Source: Thiomargarita sp. (GTDB taxonomy: Bacteria > Pseudomonadota > Gammaproteobacteria > Beggiatoales > Beggiatoaceae). Taken from it: 64,000 nucleotides of DNA. The DNA is taken from positions 62,001-126,000 of the forward strand of contig DYRG01000002.1 of assembly GCA_020718845.1 (NCBI GenBank). Direction: 5' to 3'. The position numbers and the translations under genes are program-made. Each line of letters starts with the position of its first letter. The stretch's first letter is position 1. A model generated the notes under the pieces. That model was given only the letters and a program-made list of their open reading frames with translations. It was not told where the DNA came from and did not search any database. Below are positions 30,593 to 36,466 of this stretch, in pieces.

Positions 30593-30705
30593 TTGGTAAT
30601 TTGAATTTAAATTTTTTGTACGTTACCGAGTTTTTAGGCTTGAGTTTTAAATAAAAACAGATTAAATTGTTTTAACTTTTCAATTAATTTTATTTGGAGC
30701 ATTTT

Positions 30706-31206
30706 ATGAAACAAAGTTTCGTGTTTGGCATCGTTTTAAGCGTGAGCAGTGTGGCGTGTGCGGATTTACCCGACGCGAACAAATTGCAAAACTTACAAAA
30801 AGCCCTGACTGATAAAGCCAATGAATACAAGATGTTAGTGAATGGCGCAGGGAAATGTTTAGATGTTTCACCTGCTCAAGCCCGCAATAATGGTGCGCGA
30901 ATTCAACTTTGGGATTGCAACCCCAATGAATTTCAACGTTGGAAAAGTGAGAATGGTCGTTTCAAAAACACCAGCGGCAAATGTTTAGATGTGGCGGGTG
31001 ATGTCAAAAAAGGCGGTACAATCATTCACTTATGGGATTGCAACGATGCCCCTAATCAAAAATGGTCATTTGACGGCGGACGTTTGCGCAATGCGGGCGG
31101 CAAATGTTTGGACGTAAATGGCGACGTGAACAAAAACGGTTCTGGCGTGCAAATTTGGGATTGCAACAACGCGATTAACCAAAAATGGTCGCACCAACTC
31201 AAATAA
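30706..31206 (+). CDS. Exported ricin-type beta-trefoil lectin
   Basis: A 166-aa protein with a signal peptide (1-19, cut after a VACA-like site), followed by a single ricin B-type beta-trefoil domain of three repeats. Each repeat has the GKCLDV start and the QxW-type end: LWDCNPNEFQRW, LWDCNDAPNQKW, IWDCNNAINQKW. Such domains bind galactose-like or other sugars. No enzymatic domain is attached, so it is a free secreted or periplasmic lectin. GGAG six bases before the ATG at 30706 sets the start. Its end overlaps gluQ by 22 nt. Confidence 0.88.
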   Translation: MKQSFVFGIVLSVSSVACADLPDANKLQNLQKALTDKANEYKMLVNGAGKCLDVSPAQARNNGARIQLWDCNPNEFQRWKSENGRFKNTSGKCLDVAGDVKKGGTIIHLWDCNDAPNQKWSFDGGRLRNAGGKCLDVNGDVNKNGSGVQIWDCNNAINQKWSHQLK

Positions 31207-33809: not shown

Positions 33810-34067
33810 TTAGGCTCTTTTCCAATATTGCCTAATTGCCGTAGAAATTTTTACTAATTGTATTTCAGAAAAATCACTTCGATAAGTTTGTTCAAAAAAT
33901 TGTACTTGTAATTCAATCGGATCAGTTATTTCTGTTTTTAATCGCGCCAGCATTAATCGTCGTGCACTGGTGAACATGGATGATCCCATTTTTAAGCGTT
34001 CTTGACTGGAAAAACGCATTAACATATCTCTTTGTATTTCTTTAATTTTTTTATCCGTATCATTCAT
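33810..34067 (-). CDS. Small hypothetical protein paired with nucleotidyltransferase
   Basis: An 85-aa, mostly helical protein: EIQRDMLMRFSSQERLKMGSSMFTSARRLMLARL, then a second helix pair ending in IRQYWKRA. I recall short proteins with the ERLxMGSxMF...AR pattern next to nucleotidyltransferases in several bacterial phyla, but no function is known to me. Its ATG lies inside the last codons of the nucleotidyltransferase gene (8-nt overlap), so the two are translated together. A toxin-antitoxin or regulatory pair is a reasonable but unproven guess. Confidence 0.6.
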   Translation of the reverse strand: MNDTDKKIKEIQRDMLMRFSSQERLKMGSSMFTSARRLMLARLKTEITDPIELQVQFFEQTYRSDFSEIQLVKISTAIRQYWKRA

Positions 34068-34614
34068 CGCTTTTTATTTCTTCCAATAATGCAATTATAT
34101 TTAACTCATTAGCCCATTTTCTTAGATAAGAATAATCTATTTTTATCTTTGAATTTAATAAGTTAGATACATCTCTTAATTGAAACTCAGAATGGCTATC
34201 TTTTGCCCAGATCAATTTAGATAAAATTAAATCTTCTGGGGTCACAAACCAAGCAAAAACATTATCATCAATTTGAATACGTTGGCGGCGATTAAACTCT
34301 TCAATTCGAAACGGTAAATTTTTTTTCACAACAAAATCTATTTTTACGGCTGTTTGATAATGGATAATATTAAAGAACCCTTTCATTTCAACTTGTTTGC
34401 GAATTGTTTCTTCGTCTAAGTAAAAATCCAACTCAAATAATTCTTTTAATGTGTTGATATTATTACAATTTAACTCAATAACAATGTCAATATCTCGCGT
34501 CATGCGTGGCTGTACATAGTAATTCATTGCAGTCGAACCACTTATCATATAAGTAATTTCTGCTTGCTCTAATTTTATTACCACGTCAACCAGAATATCA
34601 AACTGTTCTTTCAT
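34060..34614 (-). CDS. Nucleotidyltransferase, DUF6036/AbiEii-like
   Basis: A 184-aa protein of the nucleotidyltransferase superfamily. Seen: the GS motif and paired aspartates in ISGSTAMNYYVQPRMTRDIDIVIEL, with a third acidic position in VKIDFVV, and a later conserved segment FVTPEDLILSKLIWAKDSHSEFQLRDVSNLL typical of DUF6036/AbiEii-like proteins. All metal-binding aspartates are kept, so it is probably active and would move a nucleotide onto protein or RNA. It starts 4 nt after the der stop and overlaps the small 85-aa gene by 8 nt. Confidence 0.78.
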   Translation of the reverse strand: MKEQFDILVDVVIKLEQAEITYMISGSTAMNYYVQPRMTRDIDIVIELNCNNINTLKELFELDFYLDEETIRKQVEMKGFFNIIHYQTAVKIDFVVKKNLPFRIEEFNRRQRIQIDDNVFAWFVTPEDLILSKLIWAKDSHSEFQLRDVSNLLNSKIKIDYSYLRKWANELNIIALLEEIKSDE

Positions 34615-34617
34615 ATT

Positions 34618-36000
34618 TTATTTCTTAGCAAAACGGACTAAACGACGGCGTTTTTTGACTTGGTGGGGCGTAAGTGTATTTTTACGATCTTTAAAAGGAT
34701 TCTCGGATTGTTTGAAATTGATCTTAATTGGTGTTCCTTCCAATTTTAAGGTATTTCTTAATGCATTATTCAAATAACGTTGATACATTTCTGGCATATC
34801 ATCAGTTTGATTGCCATGAATAATAAATAACGGAGGATTTTGACCGCCTTGGTGCATATAACGTAACTTAATTCGACGACCTTTCACTAAAGGAGGCGGA
34901 TGTGCAGAAACCAGTTCTTGTAACAAGTTGTTTAATTGTGGCGTGCTCACTTTACAAAACGCAGAGGTATAAGCGCGGCGAATGAGTTGAAATAAATTTC
35001 CTACCCCACTTCCATGCAATGCAGAAATGAATTGAGGCTTTGCAAAATCAATGAAATGAAACTTGCGTTCTAAGGTAGCTTTAACGTGGTTTCTTTGGTC
35101 TTCATTTAAACCGTCCCATTTGTTAATTGCTAACACTAAAGAACGCCCACTTTCTACCACTAAACCTAATAAAGAAGCATCTTGATCGGTAATGCCTTCG
35201 CGTGCATCGAACATCATCACCACGACGTGCGCTAATTCTAAGGATTGTAACGATTTGATTACACTGAATTTTTCGATACCTTCGTCGACGCGAGAACGGC
35301 GGCGAATTCCAGCGGTGTCGATTAAAAGAAAGGCTTGTCCGTCGTGTTCAAAAGGGACGGAAATGCTGTCGCGGGTGGTGCCGGGCGCGTCGAAAGTTAA
35401 AAGGCGTTCTTCACCTAAGATTCTGTTTATTAAGGTAGATTTTCCCACGTTTGGACGACCAATCACCGCAACGCGAATTTGTTCGGGCACATCTGGTAAT
35501 TCGACTTCTTCGGGAAATGGCGCGAGCACGTCCAAAATCAAATCCATTACGCCTTGTCCGTGCGAAGCAGAAATTGCGGCGTAATTTTGAAATCCCAACC
35601 GATGAAAATCGACGCTAATCATTGTGGAATCAAAGCCTTCCGCTTTATTGATGACTAAATACAAAGGCTTATTATAAGTGCGGAGTTGTCGAGCGATGGT
35701 TTCGTCTAAAGCGGTCAAACCTGCGCGTCCATCGACCAAAAACAGCACGACATCGGCTTCTTCGACGGCTTTGAGGGCTTGTTGGCTGATGCGGGTGTCG
35801 AGGGAATCGTCGGAATTGTTCAACCCGCCGGTGTCGACCACCATGTAACGTCGCCCGCTAAGCTTTCCTAACCCATATTTGCGATCGCGGGTCAAACCAG
35901 CCTGATCGGCGACAATCGCGTCGCGGGTGCGAGTTAAGGCATTGAAAAGTGTAGATTTTCCAACATTTGGTCGTCCGACAATCGCAATTACTGGCAGCAT
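34618..36000 (-). CDS. der: GTPase Der (EngA)
   Basis: Der (460 aa) is a ribosome-assembly GTPase with two tandem G domains. GRPNVGKST occurs twice (about 8-16 and 184-192), with DTAG/DTGG, NKAEG and NKWDG. A C-terminal KH-like domain (about 355-440) follows, with RIKLRYMHQGGQNPP and KRRRLVRFAKK at the end. It is normally downstream of bamB or hisS; here the nucleotidyltransferase pair follows closely. Confidence 0.97.
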   Translation of the reverse strand: MLPVIAIVGRPNVGKSTLFNALTRTRDAIVADQAGLTRDRKYGLGKLSGRRYMVVDTGGLNNSDDSLDTRISQQALKAVEEADVVLFLVDGRAGLTALDETIARQLRTYNKPLYLVINKAEGFDSTMISVDFHRLGFQNYAAISASHGQGVMDLILDVLAPFPEEVELPDVPEQIRVAVIGRPNVGKSTLINRILGEERLLTFDAPGTTRDSISVPFEHDGQAFLLIDTAGIRRRSRVDEGIEKFSVIKSLQSLELAHVVVMMFDAREGITDQDASLLGLVVESGRSLVLAINKWDGLNEDQRNHVKATLERKFHFIDFAKPQFISALHGSGVGNLFQLIRRAYTSAFCKVSTPQLNNLLQELVSAHPPPLVKGRRIKLRYMHQGGQNPPLFIIHGNQTDDMPEMYQRYLNNALRNTLKLEGTPIKINFKQSENPFKDRKNTLTPHQVKKRRRLVRFAKK

Positions 36001-36310: not shown

Positions 36311-36466
36311 TTATCTTAAAATATTATTCAATTTTTCTATGAAAACGGTTTTGCCGATGTTATTTTTGCCACTAATTAAATTGATGCGCTTGAAACCTTT
36401 TGCACTAAAGTTTTGAAAGCATTTGAAATCGATAATGTCGATATCGGTGAGAAAATGATTATCCAT
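36311..36466 (-). pseudogene. AAA-type ATPase N-terminal remnant
   Basis: A 51-codon minus-strand frame with a GGAG site upstream. It encodes an N-terminus typical of AAA_15/AAA_21-type ATPases (as in OLD-like and abortive-infection proteins): IDIIDFKCFQNFSAKGF, then the P-loop SGKNNIGKT. A stop follows soon after the P-loop; the Walker B and sensor parts are gone. The truncation is clear from the sequence; the original function is not recoverable. Confidence 0.65.

What the first reader, a model, noticed from the sequence alone, without database searches (positions are those of the whole stretch)
33810..34614. Nucleotidyltransferase/small-protein pair behind der
An NTase with intact GS and DxD residues overlaps by 8 nt an 85-aa helical protein of unknown function. 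The same kind of pair recurs, from memory, in several phyla. Overlap, size and NTase type fit a toxin-antitoxin module like MNT/HEPN or AbiEii/AbiEi but the small partner matches neither. This is my best candidate for an undescribed system.
Basis: inference. Interest (0 to 1): 0.55.

Follow-up and report, generated by a model that had tools for sequence, protein, structure and literature searches.

The report
Toxin-first relative of MenAT1 toxin-antitoxin
Two overlapping genes look like a self-poisoning enzyme and its small antidote, related to a tuberculosis toxin-antitoxin pair but with the gene order reversed, and the same reversed pair occurs across many bacterial phyla.

Summary
In detail: a 184-aa nucleotidyltransferase (NTase, 34060-34614, minus strand) starts 3 nt behind der and overlaps an 85-aa helical protein (33810-34067) by 8 nt. 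The pairing is real and recurrent. All 80 NTase relatives I kept (of 177 found; 13 phyla among the 54 rows of the tree) have the small gene directly behind them, usually overlapping by 4 or 8 nt. It is not an unknown kind of system. The NTase is closest to MenT1 (Rv0078A) by profile and by fold (Z 17.4, 178 residues), with T39, D41, K133 and D148 at the MenT1 active-site positions. The small family is homologous to the Rv0078B/MenA1 antitoxin family by profile, although the window protein alone matches no Pfam model. What is new here is the layout: in MenAT1 and in 25 of 28 related NTases in Verrucomicrobiota the antitoxin gene comes first; here the toxin gene does, and these NTases form one clade (support 96/98). 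Orphan small genes with a lost or truncated NTase are common; the reverse is nearly absent, so the NTase is probably the toxin. Five of six plasmid homologues carry the small domain fused to the NTase. Best reading: a toxin-first MenAT1-type tRNA-modifying toxin-antitoxin pair. Activity was not tested.

The parts
34060..34614 (-). NTase, 184 aa, predicted toxin (MenT1-like). Active-site residues by alignment or spacing with MenT1: T39, D41, D43, K133, D148
33810..34067 (-). 85-aa all-helical protein, predicted antitoxin (MenA1/PF18993-like family); starts MNDT; long helix at residues 21-42
34060..34067 (-). 8-nt overlap of the NTase stop and the small-gene start, probable translational coupling
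34618..36000 (-). der (GTPase), 3 nt upstream of the NTase start; probably co-transcribed, but the linkage is not conserved and der is not part of the module

Best explanation
The pair is a chromosomal toxin-antitoxin module of the MenAT1 type with the gene order inverted. The NTase is the toxin: it probably adds nucleotides to the 3' end of tRNAs and stops translation (inferred from MenT1). The small helical protein is the antitoxin: its long conserved helix probably binds the T39 loop of the NTase and either blocks the active site or pushes T39 towards bound NTP, so that the toxin phosphorylates itself and is switched off (inferred from MenA1). The small gene is translated by coupling through the 4/8-nt overlap (inferred). 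Shown here: obligate pairing, homology of both halves to MenAT1, invariance of T39 and the catalytic residues, a single clade for the toxin-first NTases, natural fusions in relatives, and loss of the NTase but not of the small gene. Not shown: toxicity, tRNA target, phosphorylation.
For: Pairing in 80 of 80 NTase loci. Fold: 8an5_A Z 17.4 and 8an4_A Z 17.3, 178 residues aligned; the best non-MenT1 row is Z 13.8. NTase profile against PDB sequences: MenT1 is the best of 5 hits, E 2.1e-7. T39, D41 and K133 in 54 of 54 toxin-first and 24 of 24 antitoxin-first NTases; D148 in 54 of 54 and 23 of 24. MenT1 T39, D41, K137 and D152 are the published active-site residues, with the same 15-residue K-D spacing. 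Small family: 15 of 59 members match PF18993 at E<=0.1, the most frequent of 13 families, best 5.4e-5; its profile pulled out two proteins that pass the PF18993 cut-off (L156, L166); profile-profile score against antitoxin-first small proteins 41.6, highest of 200 column shuffles 14.4, reversed 8.1. In 230 Verrucomicrobiota genomes, 27 of 28 NTase hits have such a small gene, 25 upstream and 2 downstream. Asymmetric loss: NTase-ascertained loci, small gene intact in 78, broken in 1; small-ascertained loci, NTase intact in 4, broken or absent in 8; p 5e-8; without second copies 78/1 against 3/4, p 8e-5. Small domain fused to the NTase in 5 of 6 plasmid hits.
Against: The window small protein alone matches nothing in Pfam, NCBIfam or PADLOC above chance, and the small-family profile does not find the MenA1 chain in the PDB even at E 10. 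The gene order is the opposite of MenAT1, and the 5' gene of a TA pair is more often the antitoxin (an argument in PMC3710099). The asymmetric-loss sample is small (13 loci) and partly second copies in genomes that hold another pair. The pair sits 3 nt behind der with no convincing promoter of its own (hits no more than in shuffles). No measurement of toxicity.
Confidence: 0.8

Rival explanations
1. Roles swapped, as in MNT/HEPN: the small protein is the toxin and the NTase the antitoxin, which nucleotidylates the small protein, perhaps at its invariant tyrosine Y62.
For: The NTase is the 5' gene, as MNT is in MNT-HEPN pairs. The small family has a Tyr in 59 of 59 members near the C-terminus. 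The NTase active site is intact.
Against: The window small protein has no histidine, so no RX4-6H motif is possible; by pattern only 6 of 59 members have one. No HEPN model is among the Pfam families listed for the 59 members at E<=0.1. Orphan small genes outlive their NTase, the opposite of what a small toxin would do. Both halves are homologous to MenT1 and MenA1, where the NTase is the toxin.
Confidence: 0.1
2. Not a TA module but a housekeeping or regulatory NTase with a small obligate subunit that modifies some RNA or protein and is co-expressed with der.
For: 3 nt from der. Mostly one copy per genome in the 50 genomes looked at. No hit in phage or viral collections.
Against: Patchy: 1 of 398 genomes of the phylum, the window's own, and 7 of 240 Verrucomicrobiota. 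der linkage absent in 17 of 17 relatives with der found. Phyla mixed in the tree, each of the four largest groups needing 5 changes. Decay of the NTase alone. Family kinship with a proven toxin. Distant members sit on plasmids.
Confidence: 0.09
3. Anti-phage defence unit (abortive infection like AbiE), in addition to or instead of a plain TA module.
For: AbiEii is the most frequent Pfam match of the NTase family, 47 of 54 members at E<=0.01.
Against: PADLOC matches are weak. No third gene is conserved: the largest cluster of flanking ORFs is in 8 of 80 loci; defence-island enrichment was not tested. It does not exclude the main reading, since TA and defence can coincide.
Confidence: 0.15

Closest known systems
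MenAT1 (Rv0078B-Rv0078A, MenA1/MenT1) of Mycobacterium tuberculosis; PMC10435456, PMC11375011
   Same: NTase fold, active-site residues T39/D41/K/D, toxin of similar length (184 against 196 aa); small helical antitoxin without DNA-binding domain; homologous small families by profile
   Different: Toxin gene first here; an N-terminal MNDT stretch and helix in front of the part that matches PF18993, and a conserved R-x-Y-G near the end; NTase identity about 20% in the structural alignment; M38 and R40 invariant in this clade; function not tested
PF18993-containing antitoxin-first MenT1-like pairs in Verrucomicrobiota (found here)
   Same: Homologous NTase and homologous small gene, directly adjacent
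   Different: Small gene upstream in 25 of 28 NTase hits; the NTases fall outside the toxin-first clade
AbiE (AbiEi/AbiEii), MenAT3, MenAT4
   Same: DUF1814-type NTase toxin superfamily, conserved Ser/Thr at the phosphoacceptor position
   Different: Their antitoxin is a large winged-helix protein (AbiEi/COG5340); here 85 aa
MNT/HEPN (MntA/HepT)
   Same: NTase gene 5' and small helical partner
   Different: Partner has no HEPN match and no RX4-6H motif in the window protein

Membership tests
MenAT1 (MenT1/MenA1) | NTase of the MenT1 fold | tested here: met
   Top three of the rows listed are MenT1 entries, Z 17.4, 17.3 and 15.9; next Z 13.8; MenT1 best PDB profile hit
MenAT1 (MenT1/MenA1) | Active-site T39, D41, K137, D152 (residues named in PMC10435456) | tested here: met
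   T39 and D41 aligned; K133/D148 assigned by equal spacing and invariance, not by a residue-level structural alignment
MenAT1 (MenT1/MenA1) | Small antitoxin homologous to Rv0078B | tested here: met
   At family level: profile-profile 41.6 against shuffle maximum 14.4, bridged by L156/L166 over the PF18993 cut-off. The window protein alone has no Pfam match
MenAT1 (MenT1/MenA1) | Small partner has the MenA1 fold | tested here: inconclusive
   Model of the small protein compared with 54 Foldseek-ranked chains, no Z>=5
MenAT1 (MenT1/MenA1) | Antitoxin gene upstream of toxin gene (15 of 21 menA1 genes, PMC10435456) | tested here: not met
   Toxin gene first here and in 80 of 80 close relatives
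MenAT1 (MenT1/MenA1) | Toxicity, neutralisation, tRNA 3'-end extension, T39 phosphorylation | not testable with these tools
   Needs experiments
Pfam PF18993 (Rv0078B-related antitoxin) | Score over the curated cut-off 27.1 bits | tested here: not met
   Window protein no match; best of the ten members scanned singly, L025, 23.6 bits
AbiE | AbiEi/COG5340 winged-helix antitoxin | tested here: not met
   Partner is 85 aa, four helices, no AbiEi match in Pfam or PADLOC
AbiE | AbiEii-type NTase | tested here: inconclusive
   PF08843 at 22.2 bits against cut-off 22.5 for the window protein; 47 of 54 members at E<=0.01
MNT/HEPN | HEPN partner with RX4-6H | tested here: not met
   No histidine in the window protein; 6 of 59 members by pattern; no HEPN model among Pfam matches

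The most novel reading that the evidence does not exclude
A distinct, widespread branch in which the MenA1-type antitoxin works as a catalytic, sub-stoichiometric trigger of toxin self-phosphorylation. That would make the usual antitoxin-first order unnecessary, so that the toxin can be translated first and be disarmed by few antitoxin molecules. In plasmid relatives the trigger helix is even fused to the toxin as a built-in switch. The unit would then be a self-silencing tRNA-modifying enzyme waiting for release rather than a classical addiction pair.
Probability: 0.25. Interest if true: 0.65.

Novelty: new variant of a known kind. Interest (0 to 1): 0.45.

Why it matters
The published MenAT1 study listed 21 menA1 genes, 15 of them upstream of a menT-like gene. 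Here the same type of pair, in a flipped order not mentioned in the passages I read, appears in at least 13 phyla, with 177 NTase matches in one scan. It gives natural tests of the antitoxin-induced autophosphorylation model: an invariant T39, an isolated trigger helix, orphan antitoxins, and natural antitoxin-toxin fusions. It also suggests names for two sets of genes that have none: the small proteins lie below or outside Pfam, and the plasmid NTases are annotated 'hypothetical protein'.

Tried and rejected
Single-protein look-ups of the small protein gave nothing useful. PDB profile searches with the small family found no MenA1 chain. The structure comparison of the small model listed only rows with Z under 5, MenA1 not among them; taken as uninformative. 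Viral contigs: no relative of either protein. PF18993 in 299 genomes of the window's phylum: 8 weak hits, none over the cut-off, not used. L013 was dropped: no profile match. L152 (=L167) and L153 were dropped from the loss count because their small gene is itself broken; L159 was dropped from the test because its partner is another NTase; L156, L158, L165 and L166 are antitoxin-first or unpaired and were not counted there. The invariance of D3-T4 is partly by construction, because I cut the proteins at an MxDT-like start; L062 and L078 lack it at the start and L159 reads MDDI. Promoter and terminator scan: no more hits than shuffles. A der-linked function was rejected. A claim of absence from print is not made; my searches for the family names and for MenAT gene order or fusion found no paper on a toxin-first form in the listings, and the library lacks most subscription journals.

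Full report
OBSERVATION. The NTase ATG lies 3 nt behind the der stop. The pair is AT-rich: GC 29% and 32% against 44% for der and 37% for the window; this is only in the lowest tenth of tiles of that size in the window, so weak as a sign of transfer.

PAIRING. Single-protein look-ups name the NTase loosely (DUF6036 28.4 bits over its cut-off, AbiEii just under, DUF2204 just over) and the small protein not at all. A class-wide search with the small protein (274 genomes) found 5 genomes including the window's own; two of the other four hits had the same NTase directly upstream. A scan of one genome per species with the NTase alignment gave 177 relatives, of which the best 80 were kept. All 80 have the small gene directly downstream. 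By profile coverage it is complete in 78; L074 is cut by the contig end and L015 is frameshifted. The L015 genome holds another, intact orphan copy (L151). The overlap is 4 nt in 45 and 8 nt in 24 of 79 loci measured. No third gene is conserved: the largest cluster of flanking ORFs is in 8 of 80 loci.

WHAT IT IS. The NTase profile (A4, 54 sequences) finds MenT1 first among PDB chains (E 2.1e-7, 5 hits up to E 1). In that alignment MenT1 PRFTRDVD lies on PRMTRDID of this family, so T39, R40, D41 and D43 carry the same numbers in both. The predicted fold (mean pLDDT 95.6) matches the MenT1-MenA1 entry 8an5 at Z 17.4, 3.2 A, 178 residues; the three MenT1 entries head the list and the next row is Z 13.8. 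PMC10435456 (sections 6 and 11 and passages read) names T39, D41, K137 and D152 as the MenT1 active site and reports that D41A, K137A and D152A abolish toxicity. K133 and D148 here have the same spacing and are invariant; that pairing is by spacing, not by a structural residue alignment.

The small family (A3, 59 sequences) is linked to the MenA1 family (Pfam PF18993) in four ways. First, PF18993 is the Pfam family matched by most members at E<=0.1, 15 of 59, best 5.4e-5, below its cut-off. Second, searches with A3 turned up L156 and L166, which score 36.0 and 32.1 bits in PF18993, over the cut-off of 27.1. Third, the profile-profile score of A3 against 26 antitoxin-first small proteins is 41.6; 200 column shuffles reached at most 14.4 and the reversed profile 8.1. 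Fourth, both are partners of homologous NTases. Against: the window protein alone shows none of this, and the A3 profile misses the MenA1 chain in the PDB.

GENE ORDER. In 230 Verrucomicrobiota genomes the NTase profile gave 28 hits at E<=1e-15. Twenty-five have the small gene upstream, two downstream (L187, L188) and one none recognised (L213). PMC10435456 reports 15 of 21 menA1 genes upstream of a menT-like gene. In a tree of 81 NTases the 56 toxin-first rows are one side of a branch (96/98; in 95% of 200 bootstrap trees), so the order changed once as far as this sample shows. T39 and D41 are present in 54 of 54 toxin-first and 24 of 24 antitoxin-first NTases; M38 and R40 are invariant only in the toxin-first clade.

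WHICH IS THE TOXIN. Order alone would hint that the 5' gene, the NTase, is the antitoxin, as argued for MNT-HEPN in PMC3710099 (passages). Decay says otherwise. Starting from NTases, the small gene is intact in 78 of 79 evaluable loci. Starting from small genes found without the NTase, of 13 loci with an intact small gene of this type the NTase is intact in 4 (L011, L012, L161 and G592:C23), absent or truncated in 7 (L010, L151, L154, L155, L162, L163, L164), carries an internal deletion in 1 (L157), and is a different NTase in 1 (L159). Fisher test 78/1 against 4/8: p 5e-8. Leaving out second copies in genomes with another pair, 78/1 against 3/4: p 8e-5. L012 is the same contig as L029 judging by length and sequence. 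Losing the toxin and keeping the antitoxin is what a TA pair allows; the reverse would harm the cell.

FUSIONS. tblastn of the NTase against plasmids gave 6 records, five cyanobacterial and one of Herpetosiphon. In 5 of 6 the annotated protein has about 90-130 residues in front of the NTase that match the small families: profile-profile 44.8 against A3 and 54.2 against the antitoxin-first set, with shuffle maxima of 17.7 and 18.5 in 200 each. In the sixth (L215) an IS701-like transposase lies just upstream. Two fusions (L219, L220) read Gly where D41 should be, so these two may be inactive.

MECHANISM. Shown here: obligate adjacency, homology of both halves, conserved active site and T39, one clade with inverted order, fusions, asymmetric decay. 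Inferred from MenAT1: tRNA 3'-end extension by the NTase; binding of the long helix of the small protein to the T39 loop; self-phosphorylation of T39. PMC11375011 (sections 6, 11 and 12 and passages read) reports that MenA1 induces MenT1 phosphorylation at T39 and that MenA1 residues 1-32, its first helix, suffice. The part of our family that matches the start of PF18993 is residues 17-43, which covers the long predicted helix 21-42. A catalytic antitoxin would also explain why the toxin may be made first; that is my inference.

DISTRIBUTION. Patchy: 1 of 398 genomes of the phylum (the window's own) and 7 of 240 Verrucomicrobiota with the small-family profile; of those seven, two (L165 and L166, in G917 and G886) are of the antitoxin-first or unpaired type. 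These counts are sensitivity-limited: the single-protein class search found four further candidates in 274, one of them unconfirmed (L013). Thirteen phyla occur among the 54 tree rows, and Verrucomicrobiota, Pseudomonadota, Acidobacteriota and Myxococcota each need 5 changes. No relatives in viral contigs or phage records.

VERDICT. A toxin-first branch of MenAT1-type TA pairs: a new variant of a known kind, well supported by sequence, untested at the bench.

Noticed in passing
L215-L220 (plasmid records): MenT1-like NTases with the antitoxin-like helical domain fused at the N-terminus in 5 of 6 plasmid hits; two of them (L219, L220) have Gly at the D41 position.
   Followed up: partly
L159:1273-1518 (minus-strand ORF coordinates), genome G618: A member of the small family (MDDI start) overlaps the end of a different, distant NTase, suggesting that the antitoxin has changed partner.
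   Followed up: partly
L015 and L151, genome G570: The only NTase locus with a broken adjacent small gene lies in a genome with an intact orphan small gene; the orphan is preceded by a run of short tandem repeats.
   Followed up: no
window 36311-36466 (minus strand): A 51-aa ORF upstream of der with a Walker A-like GKNNIGKT motif, probably a fragment of an AAA/OLD-type ATPase; judged by eye only.
   Followed up: no
window 30694-31206 (plus strand): ORF with repeated GKCLDV...W motifs typical of a ricin-type beta-trefoil lectin; judged by eye only.
   Followed up: no
L114, downstream of der: In a genome of the same family the gene behind der looks like a RelE-type toxin followed by a small possible antitoxin, another TA-like pair in the same place; judged by eye only.
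   Followed up: no
own genome, loci L001-L008: Nine matches to PF01909 minimal NTases in the window's genome; their partners were not examined.
   Followed up: no
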